Below, piece after piece: positions 14,027 to 59,449 of a DNA stretch of 64,000 nucleotides (positions within the stretch are counted from its first letter, which is position 1; every line of letters begins with the position of its first letter). Both the position numbers and the translations under genes were made by a program. Under the pieces are notes generated by a model. It ran no database searches and was not told the DNA's origin. It saw nothing but the letters and a program-made list of their open reading frames with translations. The stretch comes from a virus, in IMG/VR virus record IMGVR_UViG_3300020057_000029, positions 62,001 to 126,000 of that record. One strand, written 5' to 3'.

Positions 14027-14039
14027 CTCTTAAATTTTT

Positions 14040-14417: not shown

Positions 14418-14419
14418 AT

Positions 14420-15193: not shown

Positions 15194-15195
15194 AT

Positions 15196-15552: not shown

Positions 15553-15555
15553 CTC

Positions 15556-16182: not shown

Positions 16183-16184
16183 AT

Positions 16185-35745: not shown

Positions 35746-36788
35746 AGCTTAACGCCTTTCAATTTAAGAACTTTCCTGTGCATCATAGAAAGATTTTTTG
35801 CAGCCGCCAACATACGAGATGTTTCTTCCTGCTGAATGTATTGGCTTTCTATATCCTGAGTCTCATCTGCGGTATACTGATATACCCCCTGACCTTCTTC
35901 GTTCACTGTGGCGTCTGCGCTGACAGTAGAGGCGGCGCTCATAAGAGAGGATAGCTCAGAAACCGTCACGTTTTCTTTAGGGATAGTTTTGCCATCTAGC
36001 TTGTCCTGCTGAAATGCTCTGTTTACGGCGCTAGCCAGTTCGACTGGATCATTGATGCCTTGGCGACCACGAATGGTGTGAGCCTTATAGAGAACTCTCT
36101 TATCCGAAGGATAAAAATGGAGCATTGTCTCTGAATAACTATCGATCATGTTTCCTACCATCCTGCCAATGCACACCGAGCGGAACACTGGAGAGTATTT
36201 ACCAACATATTTATCGACGCCTGCTGCCAGTCCCATCGCACAGATATTGACAAAATCTATGAGAGTTAAATGGCCCCTTGGAGTCTTCCTGTAAAACAAT
36301 TTTGCCCTGTTGATTGCCAAAGGCATATTGTTCTCGATCAACCTGTTTCGAGCTACGTGTACTCTATTGTACAGCTGTTCGGCACGTTTTGGGAAGGGGC
36401 CAAGCCAACTTTTACGAATAAACTTTATAAGTTGATAATTGATATCAAACTCTTTTAGTTCTTCTATCTTACTCTCGTCTTTGCTACAGGCTTTGATTAT
36501 TGGGGTGATTTCTTTGCTGAACATGACGGCGCTTTCCCTGAAATAGGGTCTGGCAGATAGGATGTTTTTGTTGGTTACGCAAACTTTTTGTAGAAATTTT
36601 TTGTAAACCTGAGTAGACTGTCGATATTTGAGAATTGTTTCTTTAAACTTTATCTCAGCATCCATAAGCTCTTCTACCTGTTCTTGCTGAACAGTGCCAT
36701 CCTTGTTCTTTTCCAAGGCCTTGGTGATTTCTGCAGCCAGTCTAGACAGTGCTGGATCAAATTCGTGTTGTTTTTTAGGGCTTGCCAT
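35742..36788 (-). CDS. phage sigma-like transcription factor lacking region 4.2
   Basis: A 348-residue protein. Residues 143-225 match sigma-70 region 2 in pattern (ARNRLIENNMPLAINRAKLF, DFVNICAMGLAAGVDKYVGK, FRSVCIGRMVGNMIDSYSE). The C-terminus stops at ETSRMLAAAKNLSMMHRKVL, the region 4.1 helix, with no helix-turn-helix after it. A sigma without region 4.2 cannot read a -35 box and would depend on the -10 element, as T4 gp55 does. Its own ATG lies 6 nt downstream of a TGATATATA promoter. Confidence 0.65.
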   Translation of the reverse strand: MASPKKQHEFDPALSRLAAEITKALEKNKDGTVQQEQVEELMDAEIKFKETILKYRQSTQVYKKFLQKVCVTNKNILSARPYFRESAVMFSKEITPIIKACSKDESKIEELKEFDINYQLIKFIRKSWLGPFPKRAEQLYNRVHVARNRLIENNMPLAINRAKLFYRKTPRGHLTLIDFVNICAMGLAAGVDKYVGKYSPVFRSVCIGRMVGNMIDSYSETMLHFYPSDKRVLYKAHTIRGRQGINDPVELASAVNRAFQQDKLDGKTIPKENVTVSELSSLMSAASTVSADATVNEEGQGVYQYTADETQDIESQYIQQEETSRMLAAAKNLSMMHRKVLKLKGVKL

Positions 36789-36794
36789 ACCCTG

Positions 36795-36803
36795 TATATA
36801 TCA
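36795..36803 (-). promoter_or_regulatory. extended -10 promoter of the sigma-like gene
   Basis: Minus-strand TGATATATA; the hexamer ends 6 nt before the ATG at 36788, where transcription would begin, giving a leaderless mRNA. Confidence 0.55.
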
Positions 36804-36818
36804 CAAGCAGGTGAACAT

Positions 36819-38324
36819 CTACTTGATTTTGATTCTTTTTATTACAGATCGCGAATTACAATATACTTCCAGTTGCTTATCTAGATGGGCCATCATTATA
36901 GGGACATCCATTACGGCATAGCCCCAAATAGTCGAGAGTGGCTTTGGAGCACACTTATCGGCCCAAGGATTTGAGTGACCATGTCTTACGGAGCGTCCTA
37001 CGGTTCCCTGAGCAGTTTTGATCTCGGATGCGCCGCCTACCCAGTTGTGGCAGTGATGTACTGGATAAATATTAGTTCCTGTTGCGATACAGGACGTTCC
37101 GATAAGAACCTTGACCTCGTTTTTATTGAACTTTTCTACACTTTCGGATGGATCAACTTTTTCTAATCCTAACTCCAGAAGACGTTCTTTTTTGGACTCT
37201 GAGTGAGCAATTGCGTAGGGAACTTTTAAAAGCTTTGATAACATGCTTATCTGTTTTAATTCTTCAACTAGAACAAGGGTTTGCTGTCCATACGCCAACG
37301 CAACGGCATTTGACATTTTGGCCACAAAAGCACAGATGTTTCGATTGCCTAAAAAATGCTCTCTTTTCATTTCTAGGGCATCATTGGAATGGAAGTTTGG
37401 ATTAGAAGATTCGAGTTCTACTATGTTAAAAACGTGCTCTGCTACGATTTTGCGTTCTTTTGCTAACCAGGTGGGCAGGTCATAGACAATGCGACCAATA
37501 ATTGACTGAAGAAGTTTTTCAGCCCCATCGTTACGCGTCTGAGTGCCGGAAAAGAAGTGACGACAAGGTACATCTCCTAGGACACCATGGCAGATATCGT
37601 TTAAAGAATCAGCGCCCCATGTGTGACTCTCATCCACACACATCTGCTGGCGAGTGCTGAAAAACTCCCACTCAACGGTTCCCTGTTTTATATTTGCTAA
37701 AGAATCGCCAATTGCGATGGTAAACTTTTTACCTATGACCTTTTTGCCATCTCCAAAGCCACCCACTTGGGCCTTGCCAAGGTATTTCTCAAACGAATCA
37801 AGGAGTTCGTGAAAAATGCTTTTGCTGGGCACCACAATTACAGTAGAGAAACCTGTGTTGCGGCAAACATGTAATAGAATCGCAGACTTACCTGCTGACG
37901 TACAGAGTTCACAGCTTGAGTGTGGATCTGCTATCATCTCGTTTTCGGTCACAAGTTGGTGTTCCATACGATCATATGGAAATTTTACCTTCCAGCCAAC
38001 CGCCTTAGGTGTTGGATATACGATGGTATTTTCAACTGTGATATTAAAATCAGCCCTTAAGTAAGGGATAGATCCTGGTCGAATGTATTTTTTACCATCT
38101 TCTTCCCAAATAAGAGTGTGGTGAACGGCTTTTTTAAGCTCTTCAAGCTTAAACGCCCATGCAGCACGATTCTTTTCTTTTAACCATTTCATGTTGTAGT
38201 GACGCTTCACCATGTGTTGAGCAGCAGTGTTTGTATAGCTGAGAACTTCGGTCAGCTTTTCTAGTTCTGCGTCGGTAATAGATTCAATGAATGCCTTTGA
38301 AGGCATGGTAATTTTAAGATGCAT
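36819..38324 (-). CDS. SF2 helicase, UvsW-like
   Basis: A 501-residue superfamily 2 helicase: Walker A/motif I CTSAGKSAIL (Lys146), motif II CVDESHTWG, motif III FFSGTQTRN, motif VI GTVGRSVRHG. The length and the N-terminal 110-residue extra domain fit T4 UvsW. UvsW processes branched recombination intermediates and stops origin-dependent replication. It is the first gene of the left operon from the divergent promoter region; the promoter hexamer is 5 nt before the ATG. Confidence 0.8.
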   Translation of the reverse strand: MHLKITMPSKAFIESITDAELEKLTEVLSYTNTAAQHMVKRHYNMKWLKEKNRAAWAFKLEELKKAVHHTLIWEEDGKKYIRPGSIPYLRADFNITVENTIVYPTPKAVGWKVKFPYDRMEHQLVTENEMIADPHSSCELCTSAGKSAILLHVCRNTGFSTVIVVPSKSIFHELLDSFEKYLGKAQVGGFGDGKKVIGKKFTIAIGDSLANIKQGTVEWEFFSTRQQMCVDESHTWGADSLNDICHGVLGDVPCRHFFSGTQTRNDGAEKLLQSIIGRIVYDLPTWLAKERKIVAEHVFNIVELESSNPNFHSNDALEMKREHFLGNRNICAFVAKMSNAVALAYGQQTLVLVEELKQISMLSKLLKVPYAIAHSESKKERLLELGLEKVDPSESVEKFNKNEVKVLIGTSCIATGTNIYPVHHCHNWVGGASEIKTAQGTVGRSVRHGHSNPWADKCAPKPLSTIWGYAVMDVPIMMAHLDKQLEVYCNSRSVIKRIKIK

Positions 38325-38329
38325 GTCCT

Positions 38330-38338
38330 ATTATATCA
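38330..38338 (-). promoter_or_regulatory. extended -10 promoter of the left arm
   Basis: Minus-strand TGATATAAT, a perfect extended -10, ending 5 nt before the UvsW-like ATG. It is divergent from the groEL promoter only 26 nt away. Confidence 0.65.
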
Positions 38339-38357
38339 AATTAGCAAAAAATAACAA

Positions 38358-38372
38358 CACGTATGATATAGA
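38358..38372 (+). promoter_or_regulatory. extended -10 promoter of groEL
   Basis: CACGTATGATATAGA; the first 13 bases are identical to the element upstream of the terminase genes at 41621. The leader that follows contains AGGAG before the ATG at 38397. No -35 hexamer was recognised. Confidence 0.65.
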
Positions 38373-38396
38373 ATATTATCAACCAGGAGATTAACC

Positions 38397-40169
38397 ATGT
38401 CATTTCGCAAGGCAAAAAGCGCACCTAAAATTTTTGAAGTAAACCCTAGTAGGCTCAGGAATAAGGTTTTAAGCACTATGCACCGTGTTTCCGAAGCGGT
38501 TGGCTCAACTATGGGTCCAGGCGGTAGAAACGTATTGATTGAATCAGACTTTCCAGGTATTCCTAACAAAAACACCAAAGACGGAGTGACTGTTTTTAAG
38601 AGCCTTGGTGCTATTGACCCATACGAACATCTTATCATAGAACAAGCCCGTGATGTGGCTCAACGTACTGCTACTGAAGCTGGCGATGGTACTACCACGG
38701 CAACCGTGCTCGCGTACAATATCATCTCTAATTTATTCGAATTCTGTGAAAAAAACAAGAAGTACAGTCCTCAAAAAGCTGCTCGTCGCATCGCTAAAAT
38801 AACACGCGAACGCCTTGTCCCTTATATCAAAGAGCGCAGTATCCCTGTTGGAGTAGACAATCAAGAATTACTCAAAATGGTAGCCAAGGTATCCGCCAAT
38901 GGCGATGAAGACATGGCGGCTGCTGTAATTAAGGCCTTTGAAGAAATTGGATACGGAGACGCCTCTCACGTAACAATCCGAGAACTATCAGGCCCTCAAG
39001 GCTATAAAGTCGAACGTATCGACGGATTCCCCATTCCTGCTGGCTATGAAGAGTCTATTGGCAAATTTCACACTGCCTTTATTAATGACCAAGCAAATCA
39101 ACGTTGTTTTCTTGAGAACCCCCTGTTTATCCTGTTTGACGGTCAGGTAAACGATCTCATGGCGTTCCACGATCTTCTAGACGTTCTTGGTAAAAAATAC
39201 GTAGAAGACGGCGACAGTGATTATAAAAACGTTGTAATCGTAGCTCATGGTTTTTCTGAAAACGTGCTCACAAATCTTGCTTTCAACTTCTCAAACCCCT
39301 CTACCCTGAACGTTGTGCCCCTGGTTACCCCAATGGCTCAATTCATCAATAGCCAGCTTCAGTTTCTGCAGGATTTAGCCGCTTTTACCGGCTCTCGCGT
39401 ATTCGGCATGAAAGATCAGATCAATACTGCTACTATTGCCGATTTAGGCGGCAGCATGGAATCTTTTGAGTGCTATCGTTTTCGCTCCACTGTGATTGGT
39501 GATCCAGACCCAACCAATATTGAGGTTCGTGCTGAAGAGCTTAGAATCATGAAAGATCGTTCTGAAAGTCAAGCTGAGAAGATCTTCTTAGAAGAGCGTA
39601 TTGGTAAGATCACTAACGGTATTGCTAAATTAACCATTTACGGCGGATCTAACGGCGAGCTCAAAGAAGCGCACGATCGCTGCGAAGACGCGGTATGTGC
39701 GGTTCGTTCTGCAATTTCTCACGGTGCTCTACCAGGTGGATGTCGTATTGCCCTAGACATGACAATGCTGCTTATGACCGAACTAGAAGCAGGTGACCCA
39801 GCCCGTGACGTTTTAGTGCCTTCTTTGTTAAGCCTACATCACAAACTGCTCGACAATGCTGGATATACTCCAGCCGAATCTAAAGAAGTTTTGGAAATCC
39901 TTTTGAACGATCCTTCTATCGTATATGACATTGAGAATCAGGTTTACGGTGACGCAAAAGAATTAGGCCTGTTCGATGCTACAAAGGCTGTACAAGAGTC
40001 CTTGTCAAACGCAGTATCTCTTGCGAATGTGCTTGGAACAATGGGCGGCTTAGTATGTCATCCTCGTGATGATGTTTTTGAACGGACAGAGGCTAGAGCA
40101 GATGCTGACTTTGGCCGTGTAACCTCCAACCCAAATGCGTACGTTAATGAAGCTAATAATCGCCCATAA
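38397..40169 (+). CDS. groEL: GroEL-like chaperonin
   Basis: A 590-residue chaperonin 60. Family signatures: TMGPGGRNVLIE near residue 40, TKDGVTV, and GDGTTTATVLA (ATP binding), with the equatorial end ALPGGCRIALD. The length is slightly above bacterial GroEL (about 545), and the C-terminal GGM tail is missing, the last residues being NPNAYVNEANNRP. It probably folds phage capsid proteins; a GroES-like gene lies in the opposite arm. It opens the right-arm transcript with a normal SD (AGGAG). Confidence 0.92.
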   Translation: MSFRKAKSAPKIFEVNPSRLRNKVLSTMHRVSEAVGSTMGPGGRNVLIESDFPGIPNKNTKDGVTVFKSLGAIDPYEHLIIEQARDVAQRTATEAGDGTTTATVLAYNIISNLFEFCEKNKKYSPQKAARRIAKITRERLVPYIKERSIPVGVDNQELLKMVAKVSANGDEDMAAAVIKAFEEIGYGDASHVTIRELSGPQGYKVERIDGFPIPAGYEESIGKFHTAFINDQANQRCFLENPLFILFDGQVNDLMAFHDLLDVLGKKYVEDGDSDYKNVVIVAHGFSENVLTNLAFNFSNPSTLNVVPLVTPMAQFINSQLQFLQDLAAFTGSRVFGMKDQINTATIADLGGSMESFECYRFRSTVIGDPDPTNIEVRAEELRIMKDRSESQAEKIFLEERIGKITNGIAKLTIYGGSNGELKEAHDRCEDAVCAVRSAISHGALPGGCRIALDMTMLLMTELEAGDPARDVLVPSLLSLHHKLLDNAGYTPAESKEVLEILLNDPSIVYDIENQVYGDAKELGLFDATKAVQESLSNAVSLANVLGTMGGLVCHPRDDVFERTEARADADFGRVTSNPNAYVNEANNRP

Positions 40170-40178
40170 TGATACAAT
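40170..40178 (+). promoter_or_regulatory. extended -10 promoter of homing endonuclease gene
   Basis: TGATACAAT, ending 6 nt before the ATG at 40185, in the 15-nt gap after groEL. Predicts a private leaderless transcript for the endonuclease. Confidence 0.5.
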
Positions 40179-40184
40179 TGATAA

Positions 40185-41618
40185 ATGAGCAAAAGGACAG
40201 ACATACAGATAATTAGACAGTATGTAGAGAAAAGAGGGTTTTCTCTATTGTCCAATTCTTACAAAAACAGAAAATCTGATCTTGATCTGCACTGCCCTGT
40301 TCATGGTAATTTTACCTCTACTTATAGCAACATCATACGGACCAGTATATGTCCCAAATGCGGCTATAGTTTTGGTGGTAACAAACAATCTCTGTCTCTG
40401 GAACACGTCAGGTTAGAAATAGTCAAAATGGGCTATGTCCCATTGTTTGACTCCTACAAAAGGGCCAAAGACAAACTGGAGATATCGTGTTCTTCCCATG
40501 GCAAATTCTTTGCAAGCTACGACGGCTTAAAACAAGGCAAAAGATGTCCAAAATGCAGTCTTATTTCTAAGACAAAAAACAACAGACTTGACATAGAAGA
40601 AGTAAAAAATAGAATAACAAAAGCTGGCTATTTGCCAAAATTTGAGTCTTACAGCGATTCTCAGTCGCTATTAAGCGTTGTGTGCCCTGTTCATGGCCCT
40701 TTCAAGGCGTCTTTAGAGAGATTTATGTATGGATACGGATGTCAAAAATGCTCTAAGGGAAGATCCAAATCTCAAGACGAGATGTTTGATTTTATACACA
40801 GTCTGAATGCAGACACTAAAGAAAATGTCAGAGACGTTATCGGCCCACTAGAGCTAGATGTCTATACGCCGTGCCTGAATTTGGCCATAGAATACTGTGG
40901 ACTTTATTGGCATTCCGATCTGTATAAAAATAGAAATTATCATTTCGACAAAATGACAATGACCAATACTGTAAATATTCGTCTCATAACAATTTTTGAA
41001 GATGAGTGGTTAGAACGCAAAGATCAGGTAAAAGGATTTCTTCGATCTGTATTGAAAAAGAATAATAGAAAAATCTTTGCTAGAAAAACAAACCTTAAGC
41101 AAGTAGGAAAAGCAGAAGCTTGTAAGTTTCTTGAAGAAAATCATATTCAAGGGTCTTGCGGTCTAGAAGTCGCTTTTGGCTTGTACTGTAGGGATGAGCT
41201 TGTAGGCGTAGTCACTGGCAACAGGCATCACAGGAATATTAAAGCAAATCAGCTAGTGCTCAACAGACTAGCCTTTAAATCAGGCATTAGCGTGACCGGT
41301 GGTTCTTCCAAGCTTTTGAGAGCCCTAATGGAATACTCTAAAAACAATGATTATTCCAAAATAGTTTCTTGGTCTGATAACAGATGGTCCGAAGGCAATG
41401 TTTATAAAAAGCTAGGTTTTGAGTTAGAAGAAGAGTTAGCGCCAGACTATAGCTACGTGAAAAAATCAAAAAGAGTGTCTAAGCAGTCTATGACCAAGAA
41501 CAAGTTGATTGAGCGGGGTGCCATTGGTAATACTGAAAGAGAAATGGCTATCAATCTAGGCTATGGCAGAATTTGGGATTGTGGAAAGAAAAGGTGGGCT
41601 TTAAAGTTAAAAAGATGA
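40185..41618 (+). CDS. Vsr-like homing endonuclease (EDxHD type), intact copy 1
   Basis: A 477-residue protein. The N-terminal part has three CPxHG..CPKC-type zinc repeats (about residues 37-59, 102-124, 167-189), likely DNA-reading modules. Residues 195-290 form the Vsr-like nuclease (LELDVYTP, AIEYCGLYWH, FEDEW). The C-terminal 180 residues (FLEENHIQGS to LGYGRIWDCGKKRW) are shared with the gene at 57746 and with a remnant at 42631. Free-standing endonucleases of this group are known beside split inteins. It is inserted between groEL and terminase. Confidence 0.8.
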   Translation: MSKRTDIQIIRQYVEKRGFSLLSNSYKNRKSDLDLHCPVHGNFTSTYSNIIRTSICPKCGYSFGGNKQSLSLEHVRLEIVKMGYVPLFDSYKRAKDKLEISCSSHGKFFASYDGLKQGKRCPKCSLISKTKNNRLDIEEVKNRITKAGYLPKFESYSDSQSLLSVVCPVHGPFKASLERFMYGYGCQKCSKGRSKSQDEMFDFIHSLNADTKENVRDVIGPLELDVYTPCLNLAIEYCGLYWHSDLYKNRNYHFDKMTMTNTVNIRLITIFEDEWLERKDQVKGFLRSVLKKNNRKIFARKTNLKQVGKAEACKFLEENHIQGSCGLEVAFGLYCRDELVGVVTGNRHHRNIKANQLVLNRLAFKSGISVTGGSSKLLRALMEYSKNNDYSKIVSWSDNRWSEGNVYKKLGFELEEELAPDYSYVKKSKRVSKQSMTKNKLIERGAIGNTEREMAINLGYGRIWDCGKKRWALKLKR

Positions 41619-41620
41619 AC

Positions 41621-41635
41621 CACGTATGATATAAC
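41621..41635 (+). promoter_or_regulatory. extended -10 promoter upstream of terminase
   Basis: CACGTATGATATAAC; shares a 13-base identity with the groEL promoter. The segment from here to 41779 holds only a possible short ORF, so the terminase mRNA has a long leader. Confidence 0.6.
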
Positions 41636-41679
41636 CTAGATAACATCCCTGCTTTCTTTGATCTGATTGGTAAGCTTCA

Positions 41680-41772
41680 ATGATTCATGACGAAAAACCT
41701 CTTTTAGAATATCGCAACAAATGGAGAACGCAATTCCTCCCCATGCCTAATGAGCGGGGTTTCCTTGCGTGA
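41680..41772 (+). CDS. possible 30-residue peptide upstream of terminase
   Basis: The ORF starts MIHDEKPLLEYRNKWRTQFL and ends 7 nt before the terminase start. It has no strong ribosome site. It may be a leader peptide or the remnant of a small gene. Confidence 0.3.
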   Translation: MIHDEKPLLEYRNKWRTQFLPMPNERGFLA

Positions 41773-41779
41773 AAATTAA

Positions 41780-42589
41780 ATGATCAATTTTAAAGACTTA
41801 CCTCCTGAAGAGAAAAAAGCCTTAGCGGAAGAAATGTTCAAACCTCTTGAGTCAGCTGACAAACTAAGAGAATGGATCGTATTCTTCTTTGGTCTTGACA
41901 TGCCAATTGGACATATTGATCCAGATTCGAATTCCAGTCCAATTGAGGCAATGTGGGAGATCTACTCCTGTATTAAAGAAAATAAAGGTGAAGATAATCC
42001 TGGTTACATCATGCTTTCGGCGCGGGAAGGTTATAAAACGCTTTCTGCCTCCATTCTAGAAACCCTTCTTTTGGTACATTTCAGACTAACCATCGCTCAC
42101 CTGGCAGCGATTCAGGCCCAGTCTGCTAAGGCTATTCAGTATATCAATTTCTTTTTCAACAAAATCCAACCTCTTTTGGAAGTATCGGGTTGGTCTAAAA
42201 CCAGTGAAAACAAGAGTAAGGTAAGCTTTCGTACAAAAGAAGGCGATGACGCTTACATTCGCGTAATTGTGGCCACGATGGCTGGCGCTAACTGTATAGA
42301 TCCTGCTATGGTGCTTGATACAGACAGGGGCAATATTTCCGCTCAAGAAGTATATGATTTGGTCAGAAACAATGAATGCGTAATGGTCCTGTCTTTTAAC
42401 CATAAAACAAATGAGTTGGAATATAAAGAAGTCACCCACACATTCGACTCTATCAAAACTTTAGTCACGATAGAATTAGAAAATGGGTCAATTATCAAAT
42501 GTTCTCCTGAACACAGGTTTTACATAGAAGGCAAGGGCTATATGGAGGCCAAGGATTTGACTGAAGAGGATTATTTAAGTGTCAAATAG
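41780..42589 (+). CDS. terminase large subunit, N-terminal half fused to split-intein N part
   Basis: A 269-residue protein. Residues 1-171 are the ATPase start (Walker A-like SAREGYKT, residues 80-87; RVIVATMAGAN). At Cys172 a split intein begins: CIDPAMVLDTDRG (block A) and GSIIKCSPEHRF (block B with SPEH), 98 residues ending DLTEEDYLSVK. The host sequence stops exactly before the Walker B that begins the other half. Protein trans-splicing with the product at 42762-44228 would restore TerL. Confidence 0.88.
   Translation: MINFKDLPPEEKKALAEEMFKPLESADKLREWIVFFFGLDMPIGHIDPDSNSSPIEAMWEIYSCIKENKGEDNPGYIMLSAREGYKTLSASILETLLLVHFRLTIAHLAAIQAQSAKAIQYINFFFNKIQPLLEVSGWSKTSENKSKVSFRTKEGDDAYIRVIVATMAGANCIDPAMVLDTDRGNISAQEVYDLVRNNECVMVLSFNHKTNELEYKEVTHTFDSIKTLVTIELENGSIIKCSPEHRFYIEGKGYMEAKDLTEEDYLSVK
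42293..42586 (+). mobile_element. split intein, N-terminal part (IntN)
   Basis: 98 residues from Cys1 (codon at 42293) to a stop at 42587. Blocks A and B are intact. It has no endonuclease domain; the gap to IntC contains the remnant of a Vsr-like endonuclease. Confidence 0.85.
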
Positions 42590-42630
42590 ACCGACAAGAC
42601 ATGACCTAGAGTTTGCGAGGGCGTCGGTGC

Positions 42631-42765
42631 GCAAAACAGTCTTGTAAGAAAAAGAGCTTGCTGATCAAAGGCGCTACAGGAAACACAGGGACAGAGATGG
42701 CCTTATCTTTAGGGTATGACCGCATCTGGGACTGTGGAAAAATAAGATGGGAGATTTTCTTGTGA
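42631..42765 (+). pseudogene. remnant of Vsr-like homing endonuclease between intein halves
   Basis: One frame reads KQSCKKKSLLIKGATGNTG and then MALSLGYDRIWDCGKIRWE before a stop, matching the last 45 residues of the intact endonucleases (for example KQSCTKENLLKKGAIGN and MALSLGYSRIWDCGKKRW at 57746-59449). The rest of the gene is gone. Its stop TGA overlaps the GTG start of the terminase C half (GTGA), which shows the ancestral order IntN, endonuclease, IntC. Confidence 0.88.
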
Positions 42766-42875
42766 AAAAAGTAAAGATAAAAAGTATTAAAAGGTCAAAC
42801 GTAGAGGTTCCAATGTTGGACTTTACCGTTGCTGATAACCACAACTACTTTGTGGAGCAGGCGCTTACTCACAAT
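42762..42875 (+). mobile_element. split intein, C-terminal part (IntC)
   Basis: 38 residues ending in Thr-His-Asn, followed by extein Ser at 42876. Length and motifs match known split-intein C parts such as gp41-1 and DnaE types. Confidence 0.85.
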
Positions 42876-44228
42876 TCTGAGCATACAAACATGATGTTCG
42901 TAGACGAAATCGACGTGGTGGCAAATCCTCAAGCCTATGAAGAGGCTAAGCTCATTCCTGGTTATGCTAAGGGATTACATCCGGTTACCGTGAAGCTATC
43001 TACTCGTAAATTTGCATTTGGACTCATGCAGAAGGAACTTGACCTGGCTCCAATATCAGGTGATAAGATTCTTAGGTGGAATCTTTTAGATGTTACGGAG
43101 CGTTGCCCTGATAGTCGCCATAGGCCAAATGAGCCAAAAGAAGACCGGTATGTAGCAAAAGCCTTGCCTCTAAAACAGATGAGTGTAGAAGACTACTCAG
43201 ATCTACAAGATGTGGAAAAGGACAAGTTCGACCTCATTCCGCAAGCCCATGCTGGATGCTCCAGTTGCAAACTCTTGCCGGTATGCAAGACCAGGCTAGC
43301 AGCTCGTCCAGCCAATGATGTTGGCGGCTTGTTTAAGCCCGTAGGCGCTGTGATTAACACTTTTAAGAAGACCGGCCCTGATCGCGCAGAGGCACAGCTT
43401 CTTTGCTGGAAGCCATCCACTAAAGGAATGGTGTACCCTCGCTTTGAGTCCACACTCGATACCGGCAACGTGATCAGTCTTGAAAAAGCCTGGGAAACCC
43501 TTGTTGGTGATCCTCCTCATAAAAAGAAGATTTCAGAAGCCGATCTTCTTTGGAAGATGCAGCAGCTTGGAATTGCATTCTACGCTGGAGTGGACTGGGG
43601 TTATACTCACGATTTCGTAATCGTTGTTTTTGCCATAATCCCTAATGGTGAAATATGGATTGTAGACTGTTATTCAATGGCCGGTCTAGAATTTTCTGAC
43701 ATCTTGGAAATCGCTAAAGACTATCGCGATAAGTACCGTATGGATAAATGGTGGTGTGACCAGGCTATGCCTGCGAATATCAAATCTTTTAACAAGAACC
43801 ATATGAAATCTCCTTCTTTCACCAAAGATGTTATGGGTGGAATTGAATCTTTGCGTTCTAAGATCTTAGATGGTAACAGCAGGCGTTTGCTTAAGGTTTT
43901 TAATACGGAAAACTGTGAAAAAGTAATTACAGCCTTTCAAAAACACCATTTCAAGCTAGACAGTGCGGGTAACCCTTCTCTTATCCCAGATGATACCCCT
44001 GGGGTCGCAGATAGCGCCGATGCTATGCGTTACGTTGGCCAAAACATGTTTCCTATCCGTGGACCCCAGAAACCCAGTATGGCCGCTGACGCTACTGGGA
44101 ATACTGCTGTAATGGTTCAGAATGTCGAAAATTCCGAGCTGATGAAGCAGGAGCTATTAAACAGGTTAGAGGGAACAGCTTTTAAGGGCGGGACGGGCAA
44201 AAAAGGTGGGTTTCATTTTAACTTCTGA
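42762..44228 (+). CDS. split-intein C part fused to terminase large subunit C-terminal half
   Basis: The GTG at 42762 has GGAG 8 nt upstream and overlaps the remnant stop; an ATG at 42747 is the alternative. Residues 1-38 are IntC (VPMLDFTVADNHNYFVEQALTHN split over block F and G, with terminal His-Asn), then Ser+1. The extein has Walker B MMFVDEID at once, then the RNase H-fold nuclease (AGVDWGYTHDF, WWCDQA, DSADAMRY). With the N half it forms the packaging motor. Confidence 0.88.
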   Translation: MKKVKIKSIKRSNVEVPMLDFTVADNHNYFVEQALTHNSEHTNMMFVDEIDVVANPQAYEEAKLIPGYAKGLHPVTVKLSTRKFAFGLMQKELDLAPISGDKILRWNLLDVTERCPDSRHRPNEPKEDRYVAKALPLKQMSVEDYSDLQDVEKDKFDLIPQAHAGCSSCKLLPVCKTRLAARPANDVGGLFKPVGAVINTFKKTGPDRAEAQLLCWKPSTKGMVYPRFESTLDTGNVISLEKAWETLVGDPPHKKKISEADLLWKMQQLGIAFYAGVDWGYTHDFVIVVFAIIPNGEIWIVDCYSMAGLEFSDILEIAKDYRDKYRMDKWWCDQAMPANIKSFNKNHMKSPSFTKDVMGGIESLRSKILDGNSRRLLKVFNTENCEKVITAFQKHHFKLDSAGNPSLIPDDTPGVADSADAMRYVGQNMFPIRGPQKPSMAADATGNTAVMVQNVENSELMKQELLNRLEGTAFKGGTGKKGGFHFNF

Positions 44229-44266
44229 CGCAATCTTAACTGTAATAGCTTATAGGAGGCTTTCGA

Positions 44267-45211
44267 GTGTCTAAATTTAATTTATTATTCTTTCTCAATG
44301 CTTACAAAGACGCTGCCTCTACAAACCAGCCAAATTTCCAGAACTTCAAATGGAGTAGGGAAATCAATGGCCTATCAGCATCAAAGCCTTTAAGTCAAGA
44401 ATTAAGCCTAGCTCCAGGTGAGTCTAAGACCGTCTTTGATGGCACCAGAGCTTTGTCCCAGGACGGCAGCACTGTCTACTCTTTGGCCTTAAAAGTCGGC
44501 GCATCCTCTATTTATGTTCTTAAGCACATTTCTGGCACTGCACCTGCTTTTCGTACAGCTCGCAGCTCAGCAGCTGACGCTACAACTCAAATAACAGTGA
44601 CTCAAAACGGTCCACTATTGATTTTTACATCGACTGGTGGCACAGCCCTTAGCCTGATCGCTGGCGGCGCTGTGGTTGGCGACTACGTTCGTCTAGGCAG
44701 CCTTTTTGATGTCAACAACCAAGGCGAATGGAAAATATTAGCCTTAACAGCCACCAGTCTTACTGTAAAAAATGATATTGGTGTTGCTCAGGGGCCAATC
44801 ACTCTTGCTGCTGGTTTTGATGATCAGCTTCGTGTTTACGGGGCCTTGGGCGTACAGGTAGATGACACCCTCAATATCACTGGTGGATTTTCAATTATAA
44901 GCCGCGATGCTTATAAGATCACTGCCGTTTCTGACAATCTTGTAGAATTTTCCAGTCTTGAGGTCTTGCCAACAGAAGCAAGTGTGACCACCAATGCTCT
45001 AGCTATTTACTCCGCTGCTAAGCAATTTGTATATTTAGAAACATCTGAAAAGGTTTCTCTAATTATCAACGGGATAGCAACAGGAGATGTTGAACCTTTC
45101 TTGGTAGGTAATAAGCCTGGTATTTTTGTTAAAACCGCAACAATGTGGTCTTTGGCTATCACAAATCAAAGCACTGATCCAGCATCTGTTTACGTTGCTG
45201 CAATTGAATAG
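44267..45211 (+). CDS. probable virion structural protein
   Basis: A 314-residue protein started by GTG after a perfect AGGAGG. It is rich in Ser, Thr, Ala, Gly and beta-branched residues with regular beta-like periods (ATTQITVTQNGPLLIFTSTG), typical of head decoration or tail-associated proteins. Between terminase and portal genes, a head-related role is likely, but no family was recognised. Confidence 0.5.
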   Translation: MSKFNLLFFLNAYKDAASTNQPNFQNFKWSREINGLSASKPLSQELSLAPGESKTVFDGTRALSQDGSTVYSLALKVGASSIYVLKHISGTAPAFRTARSSAADATTQITVTQNGPLLIFTSTGGTALSLIAGGAVVGDYVRLGSLFDVNNQGEWKILALTATSLTVKNDIGVAQGPITLAAGFDDQLRVYGALGVQVDDTLNITGGFSIISRDAYKITAVSDNLVEFSSLEVLPTEASVTTNALAIYSAAKQFVYLETSEKVSLIINGIATGDVEPFLVGNKPGIFVKTATMWSLAITNQSTDPASVYVAAIE

Positions 45212-45234
45212 TTTGGTCAAAAGCGACATGATTA

Positions 45235-45243
45235 CGATATAAG
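45235..45243 (+). promoter_or_regulatory. extended -10-like promoter of the portal gene
   Basis: CGATATAAG, ending 7 nt before the ATG at 45251, with AAGG overlapping. The TG is CG here, so it is a weaker member of the family. Confidence 0.45.
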
Positions 45244-45250
45244 GTAGAAT

Positions 45251-47122
45251 ATGGACAATGACAACAAAACTCCAGACCAAATAGAAGCTGCAATTGTTGC
45301 TTTGCAATCTGCTGTAGCCTCAGTCGATTCTAAAAAGAAGATGTTGTTTACCGTTTCTGATACAGAAGAGGCTACCCTTGCCAAGGGTGGCTATGAAAGC
45401 TCTAGCCCCATATCGCCCTTGCTTGCTGCTATTAAAAGTGCTTCTGGTTCTGCAAGCAGGAAAGCCCCTCGTTTAGCTTTTACTGAAAACCCAGCACCTT
45501 CTGACAATTATCTTGGTCTGTTCAAATCCAAGCGCAGGCTGGTGCCTGATGAGATTTTAAAACAAATTCGCGTAACCGATCACTTGATCGCTGCTATCCT
45601 ACGTGCTCGCGGCAACATGATGAGCCTATTTGGCCATCCTCGTAAAAACAGATTTGATATAGGAATGGAAATCGCTATTAAACAGGAGTTTGAAAAAGTC
45701 TTTACTCCAGAGCAATTGGCCAAAGTACGAATGCGTATCAAGAATCTTGAGGCAGTACTCGTCAACTGTGGACACACAGAAGGTCTTGAACAACAAGATA
45801 GGACCACATTAGCTGATTTTATAGATATTCAAGCTCGCAATGGATTGACATTTGGTCGTTTTGCTACTGAGATTATTTATGATCGCGGAGAAGAACCAGG
45901 CTCTGATGGTCGTTTTCCATTTTTCCGGTTTCGCGCTCTAGACGTTGCTACTATTTATCGCGCTGTTCGCAAGGGTGAAATGCTAGGAAACACACTGCGC
46001 CTAACCGCAATCAAAGCTCTTCAGTCCTTGACTGGTGAGAACTTTAAGATTGACTTTGACAGGCTTCAAGAAGACGAATATGCTTGGCTACAGGTAATTG
46101 AGGGAACCCCTCGTCAAGCCTTTACGCATGATGAGATGATTGTTTACAATCTTTACGATTCTACCGATATCGAACACAATGGCTATCCAGTATCGCCAAT
46201 GGATACTGCGATCAGTTCTATTACTACCCATATTTCTATCGATGCCTATAAAAAGCTCTATTTTCAAAACGGTCGTGCCTCTAAGGGTATGCTTGTGATC
46301 AAATCTGATGAAGTAGATCAGGCTACACTTGACAACATGAAGCTTCAGTTCAACGCTTCTATTAATAGCGTAAGTAATTCTTTCCGTACTCCTATTTTTG
46401 GTATTGGAAAAGAAGACCAAGTTGACTGGTTGGCGATGAATGAGGGCGCTCGTGACGACGACTTCCAGTTCATGTACGATCAGATTGCTCGTAACATTCT
46501 TTCTGCTTTCAATATGTCTCCTGACGAGCTTCCTGGCTACTCACACCTTTCTCGTGGTACTAACTCGCAGACCCTATCTGAATCAAATAACGAATTCAAG
46601 CTTACCGCTGCTCGTGATACTGGTCTACGTCCTTTAATCTTGAAGTTCCAGACCTTCTTTAACGAAAAGCTTCTTCCTTTGATTGACCCTTTGCTTGCAA
46701 AAATTGCAGAGGTTAGGTTCGCTGGCATTGATGCTCAGTCCAAAGAGCAAGAGTCTACTCGATTACAGCAAGACATGGCTGTACACATGAATTACGACCA
46801 GACCTTAAAAGAAGTAGATAAAGAGCCTATCGGACACACTCTTGGTGGCGAATTCCCTTTTAATGAGCGTTGGCAGATTATTATAGACAAGTACATGAAC
46901 GTTTCTGAGCTTAGGGCTCAGTTCTTCAAAGATCCTACTGCTTACGTAGATCCCTTGCTACAATATAAAAGAGATCCCTTTTTTCTACAGAATCTACAAT
47001 TGTTAGCCCAAGTAAACCCACTTGCCCTAAAAGCTTTTTATGCGACTAAGCCTTTTGCCCTAGAATTCTTAAAAATGAACATCGAAGACGCCTTAGAAGA
47101 AGACGAAAACGTAGGAACCTAA
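45251..47122 (+). CDS. portal protein
   Basis: A 623-residue protein with the portal layout: a disordered N-terminus, a wing/clip region, and a helical C-terminus. The segment FDDFQ-like region (EGARDDDFQFMYDQIARNILSAF), followed by PDELPGYSHLSRGTNSQTLSES and the NEFKLTAARDTGL helix, is typical of phage portals. It forms the dodecameric DNA channel to which the terminase docks. Located right after terminase, the usual order. Confidence 0.8.
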   Translation: MDNDNKTPDQIEAAIVALQSAVASVDSKKKMLFTVSDTEEATLAKGGYESSSPISPLLAAIKSASGSASRKAPRLAFTENPAPSDNYLGLFKSKRRLVPDEILKQIRVTDHLIAAILRARGNMMSLFGHPRKNRFDIGMEIAIKQEFEKVFTPEQLAKVRMRIKNLEAVLVNCGHTEGLEQQDRTTLADFIDIQARNGLTFGRFATEIIYDRGEEPGSDGRFPFFRFRALDVATIYRAVRKGEMLGNTLRLTAIKALQSLTGENFKIDFDRLQEDEYAWLQVIEGTPRQAFTHDEMIVYNLYDSTDIEHNGYPVSPMDTAISSITTHISIDAYKKLYFQNGRASKGMLVIKSDEVDQATLDNMKLQFNASINSVSNSFRTPIFGIGKEDQVDWLAMNEGARDDDFQFMYDQIARNILSAFNMSPDELPGYSHLSRGTNSQTLSESNNEFKLTAARDTGLRPLILKFQTFFNEKLLPLIDPLLAKIAEVRFAGIDAQSKEQESTRLQQDMAVHMNYDQTLKEVDKEPIGHTLGGEFPFNERWQIIIDKYMNVSELRAQFFKDPTAYVDPLLQYKRDPFFLQNLQLLAQVNPLALKAFYATKPFALEFLKMNIEDALEEDENVGT

Positions 47123-47123
47123 T

Positions 47124-47903
47124 ATGAGTGAAATCAATTACAAAGTAAAATACGAACAGATTAAGCTTAAGTTCATGAGCTCCGTAGATATGGCCTTCCG
47201 TCTTGGTTATGAAAATGGCCAAAAAGATTCTCAGACGGAAATGGCTGCTGGACAACAGCAAGCCGCTGAACAACAGGCTCAACAACAATCTAACGCTGAG
47301 GCAAATGGTTTTGGTGGCGGCGAGGGCGATGATTCCGATTCCGATGGAGATGGAATGGGCGATGCTCTTCCTGGTCAATCTGGGATGCCTGGTGAAGGCG
47401 ACAGTGAAGACCCTAACCAAGACCCCAATATGGGCGGTGCTGGACAGCCTGGACAGCCTGGACTAGATGGTTCTGAAGCTGATCCTGAAGCTGCTCCAGT
47501 TGATGGTTCTGAGCTGGATTCTCACATTTCTCAACTCGAACAGATGACTATGGGAAAATCTGAAGTATCCGTAGAACAGCTCAAGAAATCTTTGATTGGA
47601 ATCAAACGTTTCAAAGAGGCTCGCGACCTTCACAAGTCTATGAATGCCATCAAACAGATCGGCAATACCATGAAAAAATCTACAAAAAAACATGCTAAGA
47701 AAATGAGCGGTTTAAAACCCACATTTAACGTAAACGCTAACAAACAAGCGGCTGCAAATCTTACCGACAAAGATAAAGCGGCAATCAATGGTCAAGAAAA
47801 AATCGTAGCAGATATCATGAAATCTTGGGATGAACAAGACAAGAAATCTACCAAGAAGATCACTGACATCCTCAATATCGAAGGTTTGACAAAAAAAGAA
47901 TAA
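47124..47903 (+). CDS. head-region protein with acidic Gly-rich middle
   Basis: A 259-residue protein: Gln/Ala-rich and Gly/Asp/Pro-rich low-complexity middle (residues 40-130) between helical ends. It carries MGKSEVSVEQL, a KSE site like those of the scaffold and protease proteins, which suggests processing. Between portal and MuF genes; a scaffold or core component is plausible. Confidence 0.5.
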   Translation: MSEINYKVKYEQIKLKFMSSVDMAFRLGYENGQKDSQTEMAAGQQQAAEQQAQQQSNAEANGFGGGEGDDSDSDGDGMGDALPGQSGMPGEGDSEDPNQDPNMGGAGQPGQPGLDGSEADPEAAPVDGSELDSHISQLEQMTMGKSEVSVEQLKKSLIGIKRFKEARDLHKSMNAIKQIGNTMKKSTKKHAKKMSGLKPTFNVNANKQAAANLTDKDKAAINGQEKIVADIMKSWDEQDKKSTKKITDILNIEGLTKKE

Positions 47904-47952
47904 AACCTGCAAATATCTGGATCAAAGAAAACAGGTCTAAAGGCAATAGGAT

Positions 47953-48711
47953 ATGTTAGGAATAAGCAGTTCTGGTAGAGAACAGATCAATTCAGTTGTA
48001 GAGGATCATTTTGATACAATAGCTCTACATTTAATTGGTGACATTCCTCATCTCAAATACAAAAAACTACTTCTCATTAGCTCGACTAAAAATTACGGGC
48101 TTCCTAATCTATTTGTCCAGGCAATGGCCAACAGAACTCCTAATCCTATTGAACAGGATGTTCTTAAGAATCTTCTTGTCACTGTGCATGGTTATATCGA
48201 AGCGCTCAAAGAAAAGACCAAGAATAAAGTGGCTGAGCGTGTGGATGAAATTGTCAAGCGCTCTAAGATCAACAGAGAAAAGGCTCGCAAAGAAGACATT
48301 GAAGATGCTGTCCAAGAGGAGCTTAACAGTGCAAAAGCCCAGCTCAAAGCGATTGTGGAGTCCGAATCTACCAAGCTTCGCAATCTAGGCTCCCTAATGG
48401 ACATCTCTCACGTAGCAGCATCTCGTGGTGAGAGTGACCCTTTAGTATTCTTTGTAATAGTAAGAGACGGTAAAACCTGCAAGGAATGTTTACGGCTTCA
48501 TTTGAACCCAGATGGTAACCCTAGAGTTTGGAAGCTTTCTGAGCTCAAGCAGGGTTATCACAAACGTGGTGAAGACAACCCATCTGCTTTTGGAGCACAT
48601 CCACATTGTCGTTGCACCCTGACCTATATAACCCAAGGCTTTGGGTTCAAAGAGGGTAAAATTGCTTGGATCGGCGAAAAACATGATGAATTCAATAAGC
48701 AAAGAAAATAG
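47953..48711 (+). CDS. MuF-like head morphogenesis protein
   Basis: A 252-residue protein whose C-terminal 90 residues carry the MuF/SPP1-gp7 pattern: DGKTCKECLRLHLNPDG, then FGAHPHCRCTLTYI. The N-terminal half is helical. Such minor head proteins ride with the portal and are injected or needed for head assembly. Confidence 0.8.
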   Translation: MLGISSSGREQINSVVEDHFDTIALHLIGDIPHLKYKKLLLISSTKNYGLPNLFVQAMANRTPNPIEQDVLKNLLVTVHGYIEALKEKTKNKVAERVDEIVKRSKINREKARKEDIEDAVQEELNSAKAQLKAIVESESTKLRNLGSLMDISHVAASRGESDPLVFFVIVRDGKTCKECLRLHLNPDGNPRVWKLSELKQGYHKRGEDNPSAFGAHPHCRCTLTYITQGFGFKEGKIAWIGEKHDEFNKQRK

Positions 48712-48891
48712 TTGGCCAATTATCGTAGGACCGCACGTAACGGGATCATGATTGTGTTTGCGTTGAAAGCTGTACATACTTTCGCAAAAAGCTTACTTAT
48801 CCGTTCTTTTACCGTGGGCAGCAATCCCGCGATGCTCAATTCGTTAAATATCTCTCTTTTAAATCTGAATTAAAAAATCCCTAAAAATTTT

Positions 48892-48916
48892 TTGCGAACC
48901 ATACAGTGTTTCGCAA
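48892..48916. other. hairpin in the convergent intergenic region
   Basis: TTGCGAA and TTCGCAA form a perfect 7-bp stem around an 11-nt loop, with an A/T-rich flank. It may end one or both of the converging transcripts. The rest of the 288-nt gap (48712-48999) shows no gene, tRNA or clear element. Confidence 0.4.
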
Positions 48917-48999
48917 CATAGTCTAGCGGTTTTTAGCTCTCCACCAATAAATAGCCATTTCAGGGCAACTTGTAGGTTAAGTCTATAGTTATTGCCTTT

Positions 49000-49842
49000 T
49001 CATTTCTTTAGCCCAATTTCTTTCAGTCTTTGTTCTAGATATTCGCCTGCAGTATAGCGTTCTGACAAGCGTACTTCAGGCCTGGCGTGCATAAATAGTG
49101 GTGAAGAATACCTAGACTTGTTCGCTTCTTTGCCAGAAGGGTTTACCACTCTGTGTGTTGTAGATCTTAATTTACCAGCAGTAATTTCCTGTAACTGATC
49201 ACCAACATTCACCACCACAGTGCCTGGGTCTATGTCCAACAGATGCCATTTGCCATCCAAGTCTTTGACTGCAAGGCCTGGAGCAGATGCTGCAGGTAGA
49301 ATGGTGATCAGATTAATATCCTCATGAGGAGCCGCTCTTACTGCACCTTTTTCTGCGTCAGAAGGCAGAGGTGGGTAATGTAGCACGCGAAAAAGGGTGT
49401 TTGGAGACTCCGTAATCATGCTGGGCAGCATCAGGTTCTTGCCGGTACGCATTAGGTGTTCTACGTTGATTTGGGAAAGAAGGGTGGAGCCTAGGAGCTC
49501 AAGATCTTCAGCCAAATACATTGTGGACTTGTCGATTCCATTTGGTACGTTCTTGTCGAAGCCTGGACCAAAAAGGTGATAGAATTCTTTCAAATCCTTC
49601 ACGCTGTAGCCTTTAGCGTTCTCGCTCTTCATTGGGAAATAGCCAGAAGCCCCGCCATGCTCTGCTTTGAGATCGTGCTTCGTTTCACTGCCGAAAAATT
49701 TCTCCCACTGACCATACACTTCGCTTAAGCGTGAGCCTGAGATTCCATGATTGGTCAGAACGGCAAAGCCAGTCTGTTCGAGGGAGTTATAAAGCTCTTT
49801 ACGGAAGGTAGGGCTTGCTTTGCTGATTTTAGCGACTTTCAT
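49000..49842 (-). CDS. 2-oxoglutarate/Fe(II)-dependent dioxygenase (isopenicillin N synthase-like)
   Basis: A 280-residue double-stranded beta-helix enzyme. Iron ligands His173 and Asp175 (APHEDINLIT) and His230 (STTHRVVNP) and the 2OG-binding Arg244-x-Ser246 (SRYSSP) are all present, with the DIOX_N pattern FAVLTNHGIS at residues 26-35. The family hydroxylates small molecules, and some phage homologues modify DNA bases, though those usually belong to other clades. Its position among minus-strand genes in the late region is unusual. Confidence 0.85.
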   Translation of the reverse strand: MKVAKISKASPTFRKELYNSLEQTGFAVLTNHGISGSRLSEVYGQWEKFFGSETKHDLKAEHGGASGYFPMKSENAKGYSVKDLKEFYHLFGPGFDKNVPNGIDKSTMYLAEDLELLGSTLLSQINVEHLMRTGKNLMLPSMITESPNTLFRVLHYPPLPSDAEKGAVRAAPHEDINLITILPAASAPGLAVKDLDGKWHLLDIDPGTVVVNVGDQLQEITAGKLRSTTHRVVNPSGKEANKSRYSSPLFMHARPEVRLSERYTAGEYLEQRLKEIGLKK

Positions 49843-49850
49843 ATTGCTCC

Positions 49851-57745: not shown

Positions 57746-59449
57746 ATGAAGGATAAAATATCAGAACTGTATAAAAAAGGTGTGAAAACATCAGATATAG
57801 CCATGGTTCTAAGGAAAACGCCTCAAAGAATTAATCAAGTGCTGATAGAGCTTGGCTTAAAGCAAAAAACGTTTGACTATTCGCCAAAAATAACTGCTAT
57901 CATTGCTGAAAGCATTCTTGCTTTTAATAGAGATGGTCTGACCGTAACTGAAATATCAAAAAGGGTTGATCTAACAACCACTGGAATCAGAAATTTTCTT
58001 AAAAAACGTAGTATTTCAACAAACGCATCCAAAGAAGACAGGTCTAGGCCTTGTGTTGTTTGTAAATTAGTGTTCACTCCGAAACACTCAGATGGGGTGA
58101 AAAAAAACAAATACAAGACTTGCTCTGTCGAATGTCGCTCTAAGCACGCTAGTGAATACAGAACGAAATATACAAAAGATGATATCGATAAGGTTTTAGA
58201 GCTAAAAAAGGCCAATACTGCCAATGATGAGATTTGCCTGGCAACAGGGGTAAATATAAATAAGATCAAAGAGGTGATCAAAGAAAATGCCTTGTTTTTG
58301 GACCCAAAAGTGGCTCAAAAGAATGCTTATGAAGCTAAGCTAAAAAAGAATACTCGTTCTATGGAAGAGATGCGAGCTTATTACGGAAAAATAGCCGTAT
58401 CAGAAGAAAGTCTTGAAAAAACAAAAACAATTCTTTTGGAAAGGGGTTTTGAATATATAGATGGTTTTGAGGGCAAAAGCAATCCTTTTAAAATCAAATG
58501 TCTAGTCTGCAATAATATCAGAACTACACATAGGATAAACAATGTGGTCAAAAACGCCTGTATGTTCTGTTCTGGATGTAAAAAAACTTCCAAAGCCGAA
58601 ATAGAAATTGGGGCATGGGTAAACTCTTTAAAGATAAAGGCTGAAAAATTCAAGTTTGAATACCGAAAAGATGGTGGCGAAATAGATGTTTTTGTTCCCC
58701 TTGTAAAGGTGGGAATAGAATACTGTGGTCTTTATTGGCATAACGAAAATAGCCCAACCTCAAGAGGGGTGGATTATCATTTCAACAAAATGAAAAAGGC
58801 TAACAAAGAAGGTATTCGCCTAATAACCATTTTCGAAGACGAATGGCTCAATAAAAAAGATCAAATTAAAGGATTTTTACGATCTGTTCTTAATAAAAAT
58901 GAAATAAGGCTTTTTGCCAGAAAAACAGATTTGAGAGAGGTGCCTAAAAAAGAGGCCTCTCTTTTCTTAGAGGAAAATCATATCCAGGGTTCTTCTCAAA
59001 TCGAATCGGCTTTTGGCCTTTATTACAACGAAGAGCTTGTTGGTATTGTAACTGGCAACAAACATCACAGACAGGGAATGAAAAATCAATTCATACTGAA
59101 TCGATTGGCCTTTAAAACAAACGTAAGTGTGGCTGGTGGTTCGTCTCGGCTTCTTAAGGCGCTAATTGGTTATGCTAAAAAGAATGGCTATTTAAAACTA
59201 GTCTCGTGGTCAGACAATAGGTGGTCCGAAGGTAATGTTTACGAAAAACTAGGGTTTGTATTGGAAGAAACCCTTGGCCCAGACTATTCTTACGTAGTTG
59301 GCCAAAAAAGAATCTCCAAGCAATCTTGTACCAAGGAAAACTTGCTCAAAAAAGGAGCCATTGGTAACACAGAAAAAGAAATGGCCCTCAGTTTAGGATA
59401 TAGCAGAATATGGGATTGTGGCAAAAAACGCTGGACCTTCGCCTTGTAG
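57746..59449 (+). CDS. Vsr-like homing endonuclease (EDxHD type), intact copy 2
   Basis: A 567-residue protein with N-terminal helix-turn-helix segments (residues 1-40 and 60-95), a Cys zinc module (about 102-135), the Vsr-like nuclease (GGEIDVFVP, GIEYCGLYWH, FEDEWLNKK; residues 290-370), and the C-terminal 180 residues shared with copy 1. Two proteins of this size with different N-termini but a common nuclease/C-terminus suggest swapped DNA-recognition parts. It lies after a terminator, between capsid and phosphoesterase genes. Confidence 0.8.
   Translation: MKDKISELYKKGVKTSDIAMVLRKTPQRINQVLIELGLKQKTFDYSPKITAIIAESILAFNRDGLTVTEISKRVDLTTTGIRNFLKKRSISTNASKEDRSRPCVVCKLVFTPKHSDGVKKNKYKTCSVECRSKHASEYRTKYTKDDIDKVLELKKANTANDEICLATGVNINKIKEVIKENALFLDPKVAQKNAYEAKLKKNTRSMEEMRAYYGKIAVSEESLEKTKTILLERGFEYIDGFEGKSNPFKIKCLVCNNIRTTHRINNVVKNACMFCSGCKKTSKAEIEIGAWVNSLKIKAEKFKFEYRKDGGEIDVFVPLVKVGIEYCGLYWHNENSPTSRGVDYHFNKMKKANKEGIRLITIFEDEWLNKKDQIKGFLRSVLNKNEIRLFARKTDLREVPKKEASLFLEENHIQGSSQIESAFGLYYNEELVGIVTGNKHHRQGMKNQFILNRLAFKTNVSVAGGSSRLLKALIGYAKKNGYLKLVSWSDNRWSEGNVYEKLGFVLEETLGPDYSYVVGQKRISKQSCTKENLLKKGAIGNTEKEMALSLGYSRIWDCGKKRWTFAL

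What the first reader, a model, noticed from the sequence alone, without database searches (positions are those of the whole stretch)
41780..44228. Terminase large subunit encoded as two genes joined by a split intein
TerL is cut next to Walker B. The first gene ends with a 98-residue IntN that starts with Cys (codon 42293); the second starts with a 38-residue IntC that ends in His-Asn and is followed by extein Ser. All splicing residues are visible and both halves are separate ORFs with stop and start codons between. This is the fractured-gene layout known for some phage proteins. Without trans-splicing no packaging motor would form.
Basis: partly seen in the sequence, partly recalled or inferred. 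Interest (0 to 1): 0.9.

Follow-up and report, generated by a model that had tools for sequence, protein, structure and literature searches.

The report
Phage packaging motor split by intein
In this virus of bacteria, the gene for the motor that pumps DNA into the virus shell is broken into two genes, each ending in half of a self-splicing protein element that should join the two halves after translation; this kind of arrangement is already known, but this copy is new, and the mobile DNA-cutting gene that once sat in the break is worn down to its last ~50 codons.

Summary
ORF 41780-42589 holds the N-terminal half of TerL (deviant Walker A) plus a 98-aa IntN starting with Cys (codon 42293). ORF 42747-44228 holds an IntC ending His-Asn, then extein Ser, Walker B and the nuclease domain. 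Joining the exteins rebuilds exactly the uninterrupted junction GAN|SEHT of related TerLs. Of 78 related loci with a readable site, 70 have nothing inserted and 8 have in-frame contiguous inteins; only this phage is split. No frameshift can bridge the halves and no RNA intron model matches. Searching IntN and IntC separately returns the same fractured-gene phages (KP13-7, PM2, S16, GR11A). The nearest solved structure is split intein NrdJ-1.

The likely IntC start (GTG 42762, good Shine-Dalgarno) overlaps the relic's stop codon, which may explain why the tail survived. An intact relative sits just upstream of terL.

Verdict: real, almost certainly a trans-splicing class 1 split intein; a new member of a known kind (fractured genes; split TerL inteins AceL/GOS already known), at an unusual decay stage.

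The parts
41780..42292 (+). TerL N-extein (171 aa) with deviant Walker A SAREGYKT (about 42017-42040)
   Evidence: 41-68% identical to the same part of uninterrupted TerL relatives in viral contigs and 33% to Mx1; R, K and T of the motif invariant in A1
42293..42586 (+). IntN, 98 aa, Cys1, block B C-S-P-E-H, followed by TAG 42587-42589
   Evidence: PF14890 6e-8, TIGR01445 1.8e-6 above cutoff; best phage hit is IntN of fractured NrdA in KP13-7
42607..42765 (+). Relic of a homing-endonuclease gene: its last ~50 codons, in-frame TAG at 42607, stop TGA 42763-42765
   Evidence: phrog_3339 6.9e-9; 55% to HE1, 68% to HE2, 74% to the HE tail of L101
42762..42875 (+). IntC, 38 aa from the likely GTG start (43 aa from ATG 42747), ends Thr-His-Asn
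   Evidence: Pfam intein profile 121-155; anti-SD duplex -7.3 kcal/mol at GTG; same phage set hit as with IntN
42876..44228 (+). TerL C-extein: Ser+1, Walker B MFVDEID (about 42894-42914), RNase H-like nuclease (about 43587-44033), stop codon
   Evidence: phrog_5653 8.7e-14; PF17289 2e-4; up to 66% identity to relatives
40185..41618 (+). HE1: intact homing-endonuclease gene just upstream of terL, same family as the relic; possible partner in mobility
   Evidence: phrog_559 1.1e-101, phrog_3339 1.5e-90; no match in the 16 TerL relatives compared
57746..59449 (+). HE2: second intact homing endonuclease of the family, downstream of the major head gene
   Evidence: phrog_3339 2.1e-90; 55% to HE1

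Best explanation
terL of this phage is a fractured gene carrying a naturally split class 1 intein with a canonical split site (98/38). The two chains are translated separately (the second probably from GTG 42762) and IntN and IntC associate. Cys1 attacks the Asn-Cys bond that joins it to the N-extein; the acyl group moves to Ser+1 of the C-extein; the last Asn of IntC cyclises, helped by the conserved histidines. The result is a seamless 621-aa TerL with Walker A and Walker B on one chain. The element arrived by homing with an endonuclease gene between the intein halves; most of that gene was later deleted, leaving only its 3' end, which contains the ribosome-binding site and overlaps the start of the IntC gene. 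Shown by sequence: gene structure, splice residues, exact extein register, family of the intein, endonuclease relic. Inferred: that splicing happens, that it is needed, and the history of invasion followed by deletion.
For: Intein profile matches in both ORFs; NrdJ-1 1.8e-11 and gp41-1 3.5e-5 to the joined halves. The junction GAN|SEHT equals uninterrupted TerLs with no residue gained or lost, and 70 of 78 readable related loci have no insert there. IntN and IntC searched apart hit the same fractured-gene phages. In KP13-7 and PM2 an intact ORF lies between the halves and overlaps the IntC gene start, as the relic does here. Endonuclease relic in the gap. Good SD at GTG 42762. No group I/II intron or other RNA family match at 36000-50000 apart from a weak unrelated one. 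IntN frame closes at 42589, relic frame opens at 42610, IntC frame opens only about 30 bases before 42747, so no frameshift can link them.
Against: No protein or splicing data. IntC alone scores weakly. Only one phage population has it, so selection on the intein cannot be measured. Block B has Ser instead of the usual Thr (S-x-x-H), though gp41-1 has the same.
Confidence: 0.93

Rival explanations
1. The two halves work as separate chains without splicing, as described for a phage ribonucleotide reductase split by an endonuclease insertion.
For: A genes-in-pieces reductase that functions as separate peptides is cited in PMC10448857.
Against: All intein catalytic residues and both intein halves are intact, and the exteins meet exactly at the native junction. 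Without removal, 98 and 38 extra residues would sit beside Walker B.
Confidence: 0.04
2. The intein is dead: it is a decaying relic in a defective phage, like its endonuclease.
For: The endonuclease in the gap is reduced to its tail.
Against: Both terL ORFs are full length with conserved ATPase and nuclease motifs, all splice residues are kept, the IntC start has a good ribosome-binding site, and the surrounding head module is intact.
Confidence: 0.02
3. A spliced RNA intron or programmed frameshift joins the halves before translation.
For: ICP1 terL has an RNA intron with an adjacent homing endonuclease (PMC10448857).
Against: No Rfam match at E<=1 in the region except an unrelated weak Qrr hit; the three frames do not overlap; the inserted sequence encodes intein halves.
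Confidence: 0.01

Closest known systems
Fractured genes with split inteins (Dassa et al. 2009, cited in papers); seen here in Klebsiella phage KP13-7 nrdA, Proteus PM2 uvsW, Campylobacter WX1 nrdA, Vibrio GR11A helicase
   Same: Separate genes ending in IntN and starting with IntC, canonical split, an ORF (often a homing endonuclease) between, IntC start overlapping its 3' end in KP13-7 and PM2; similar intein sequences (joined z 28 to KP13-7, 21 to GR11A)
   Different: Target is TerL; the endonuclease between the halves is reduced to ~50 codons
AceL-TerL and GOS-TerL naturally split inteins (PMC11766414)
   Same: Naturally split inteins in phage TerL from metagenomes
   Different: Those are atypically split (25/104 and 37/115), with Cys or Ser at 1 and Cys at +1; this one is 98/38 with Cys1/Ser+1. 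Their sequences were not compared here
NrdJ-1 and gp41-1 split inteins
   Same: Same split site and layout; among the best solved matches
   Different: Other host proteins; distant in sequence
Contiguous inteins at the same TerL site in related phages (L071, L079, L097; mini-intein L073/L074/L078)
   Same: Identical insertion point GAN|S before Walker B
   Different: Single in-frame inserts, 383-401 aa with an internal endonuclease-like (probably LAGLIDADG, judged by eye) region, or 201 aa without it; splicing domains barely similar to the window's (joined z 0-9)
Mycobacteriophage TerL inteins (PMC5050341)
   Same: Insertions in the TerL ATPase domain, including Walker B (TerL1-e); shown to splice
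   Different: Contiguous

Membership tests
Naturally split class 1 intein | IntN with Cys/Ser at position 1 at the C end of one gene, IntC ending His-Asn at the start of another, followed by Cys/Ser/Thr +1 | tested here: met
   Cys172 (42293); Thr-His-Asn|Ser at 42867-42878
Naturally split class 1 intein | Splicing-domain homology (blocks A, B, F, G) | tested here: met
   PF14890, TIGR01445; NrdJ-1 1.8e-11 to the joined halves. IntC alone is sub-threshold
Naturally split class 1 intein | Trans-splicing activity | not testable with these tools
   Needs co-expression
Fractured gene (Dassa type) | Host gene broken at the intein's canonical endonuclease site, exteins rebuild an uninterrupted homologue | tested here: met
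   98/38 split; exact register against relatives
Fractured gene (Dassa type) | Homing-endonuclease gene between the two parts | tested here: inconclusive
   Only the 3' ~50 codons remain. The relic's family (phrog_559/3339) is also found between the halves in GR11A (phrog_559 3.3e-9)
AceL/GOS-TerL split inteins | Atypical split with short IntN (25-37 aa) | tested here: not met
   IntN is 98 aa; published sizes in PMC11766414
Large terminase subunit | Walker A and B ATPase motifs plus RNase H-like nuclease on one chain after splicing | tested here: met

The most novel reading that the evidence does not exclude
One TerL splice site beside Walker B was colonised independently by unrelated inteins (contiguous ones in some phages, a fractured split intein here), and in this phage mobility has passed to the free-standing endonuclease HE1 just upstream of terL (collaborative homing), so that the endonuclease inside the intein could be deleted except for the tail that carries the IntC start.
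Probability: 0.25. Interest if true: 0.55.

Novelty: new member of a known kind. Interest (0 to 1): 0.4.

Why it matters
It adds a canonical 98/38 split intein in TerL to the known atypical ones, giving a new candidate tool for protein ligation. The terL locus also shows a series at one site: empty, contiguous intein, mini-intein, and split intein with a dying endonuclease. That makes the life cycle of inteins and fractured genes testable in one group of phages. The overlap of the IntC start with the endonuclease's 3' end suggests a simple reason why such genes stay split: deleting the whole endonuclease would remove the second gene's start signal.

Tried and rejected
Frameshift or readthrough (frames do not overlap). 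RNA intron (no Rfam match). Relic as a copy of HE1 (55%; it is closer to HE2 at 68% and to L101 at 74%, so it is a separate family member). Fission of the contiguous same-site intein (weak or no similarity, z 0-9, tree support 0.75-0.89 for grouping with split inteins); not excluded at this depth. A search for a second phage with the same split TerL found only the identical record. A scan of 45 loci with related endonucleases found no other IntC-like start beside them by a simple pattern, apart from the identical record. A small ORF upstream of terL (41680-41772) has no match in the relatives; the weak Shine-Dalgarno of terL itself is shared by the relatives. Dassa 2009 full text is not held. 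No structure was predicted, because the fused intein is not a sequence of the window.

Full report
The window is positions 62001-126000 of a 155,223-base virus record. The finding lies between a phage GroEL-type chaperonin gene (38397-40169) and the portal and head genes.

Observation. ORF 41780-42589 (269 aa) and ORF 42747-44228 (493 aa) exist as described. Residues 1-171 of the first match the start of TerL relatives; residues 172-269 are an intein N-part: Pfam Intein_splicing 6e-8 (a little below its curated cutoff) and NCBIfam intein_Nterm 1.8e-6 (above its cutoff). The second ORF begins with an intein C-part ending Thr-His-Asn and continues with Ser, Walker B and a terminase nuclease domain (PF17289 2e-4, phrog_5653 8.7e-14). 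The IntC match is weak alone (E 0.012 and 0.24). The two intein parts joined match the solved split intein NrdJ-1 at 1.8e-11 and gp41-1 at 3.5e-5.

Extein register. Joining residue 171 of the first ORF to the Ser after the IntC gives ...TMAGAN|SEHTNMMFVDEID..., aligned without gap at the junction to 16 uninterrupted TerLs (14 viral contigs, one MAG contig and Myxococcus phage Mx1), 35-68% identical overall. A wider scan gave, after removing repeated records and the identical record L007, 78 related loci in which the site can be read: 70 have nothing inserted at this site and 8 have an in-frame insert without stop codons (two of these, L075 and L077, are seen only from inside the intein onward). 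None of them is split. Some records are near-copies of each other, so these are not independent events. Three of the 70 carry an intein elsewhere in TerL: two at the Walker A Lys|Thr (L056, L084) and one a few residues downstream, at Walker B (L094).

The spacer. IntN ends at TAG 42587-42589. Between 42607 and 42765, in a third frame, lies the C-terminal end of a homing endonuclease: phrog_3339 6.9e-9, 55% identical to HE1 (40185-41618), 68% to HE2 (57746-59449) and 74% to an endonuclease tail in L101. It has an in-frame TAG at 42607 and no upstream part, so it is a relic. Its stop TGA (42763-42765) overlaps the GTG at 42762, the better candidate start of the IntC gene: anti-Shine-Dalgarno duplex -7.3 kcal/mol, about the strongest 1% of random positions, against -4.0 for ATG 42747. 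In Klebsiella phage KP13-7 and Proteus phage PM2 the intact ORF between the intein halves also overlaps the start of the IntC gene. I infer that the tail survives because it carries the start signals of the second gene.

Rivals by mechanism. No frameshift can link the parts: the IntN frame closes before the relic frame opens, and the IntC frame opens only about 30 bases before 42747. No RNA family matched in 36000-50000 except a weak, unrelated Qrr hit. Separate function of the halves is possible in principle, but Walker A and Walker B would then be on different chains, with intein parts left beside the active site.

Which intein family. IntN and IntC were searched apart against 50,697 phage records. 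Both return Klebsiella KP13-7, Proteus PM2, Salmonella S16-like phages, Campylobacter phages, Vibrio GR11A and Bacillus phage G; the IntC hits are weak one by one (E 0.07 to 4), and it is the agreement with the IntN list that carries weight. In KP13-7, PM2, WX1 and GR11A, the ones inspected, the gene is fractured: nrdA, uvsW or a helicase in two or more ORFs with one or two ORFs between. Those between are a GIY-YIG endonuclease in KP13-7, an endonuclease-like protein in PM2, and in GR11A a member of the HE1 family (phrog_559 3.3e-9) on the opposite strand. By shuffled-alignment scores the window intein is close to KP13-7 (z 28), NrdJ-1 (21) and GR11A (21), and hardly similar to the contiguous inteins at its own TerL site (z 0-9); a small tree agrees with moderate support (0.75-0.89). 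So the same TerL site seems to have been entered by different inteins. The sequences are short, so this is a lead rather than a proof.

Literature. Fractured genes with split inteins are known (Dassa et al. 2009; not held; cited in PMC6892783, PMC8228797, PMC7090010). Naturally split TerL inteins AceL-TerL and GOS-TerL are known but split atypically, 25/104 and 37/115 (PMC11766414). Contiguous TerL inteins next to ATPase motifs splice efficiently (PMC5050341). ICP1 terL has an RNA intron with a neighbouring endonuclease, called collaborative homing (PMC10448857); by analogy HE1, 161 bases upstream of terL and without a match in the relatives compared, could now move this intein. That is untested.

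Verdict. It is a new member of a known kind, with two details of interest: the endonuclease relic overlapping the IntC start, and the insertion site shared with apparently unrelated contiguous inteins.

Noticed in passing
window 17814-22574 (-): DnaE-type DNA polymerase ORF (1586 aa) carries a contiguous ~397-aa intein (C445 to N841, then Ser), so the phage has a second, cis-splicing intein.
   Followed up: partly
window 40185-41618 and 57746-59449; L141 4001-4096: Two intact homing endonucleases of one family; HE1 has CapR-type zinc-finger matches and a C-terminal Mom-like/GNAT-like match (PF25680 3.1e-7). In L141 a 32-codon relic of the same family lies after the major head gene, the place of HE2 here, suggesting repeated gain and loss.
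   Followed up: partly
L071, L073, L074, L075, L077, L078, L079, L097: Contiguous inteins, two sizes (383-401 aa and 201 aa mini-inteins), at exactly the TerL site that is split in the window; L073 and L071 look like without/with-endonuclease versions of one intein.
   Followed up: partly
L056, L084 (Walker A Lys|Thr) and L094 (Walker B): Other TerL insertion sites in the same phage group are also occupied by contiguous inteins.
   Followed up: no
L143 (Klebsiella phage KP13-7) 1005-6273: nrdA is broken into several ORFs with more than one split-intein pair, annotated mostly as hypothetical proteins.
   Followed up: partly
window 4533-5519 (-): ORF with an HNH/endonuclease VII-like N-terminal part fused to a ClpP-like head maturation protease (phrog_3118 and phrog_94); a second ClpP-like ORF (judged by eye) is at 32787-33773 (-).
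   Followed up: no
window 13448-16790 (-): Run of four or five neighbouring pentapeptide-repeat ORFs that share a common N-terminus.
   Followed up: no
window 38397-40169: Phage GroEL-like chaperonin next to terL, 69-76% identical in relatives and upstream of terL where visible.
   Followed up: partly
window 44267-45208: Gene directly after terL is conserved in the relatives but matches no PHROGs family.
   Followed up: no
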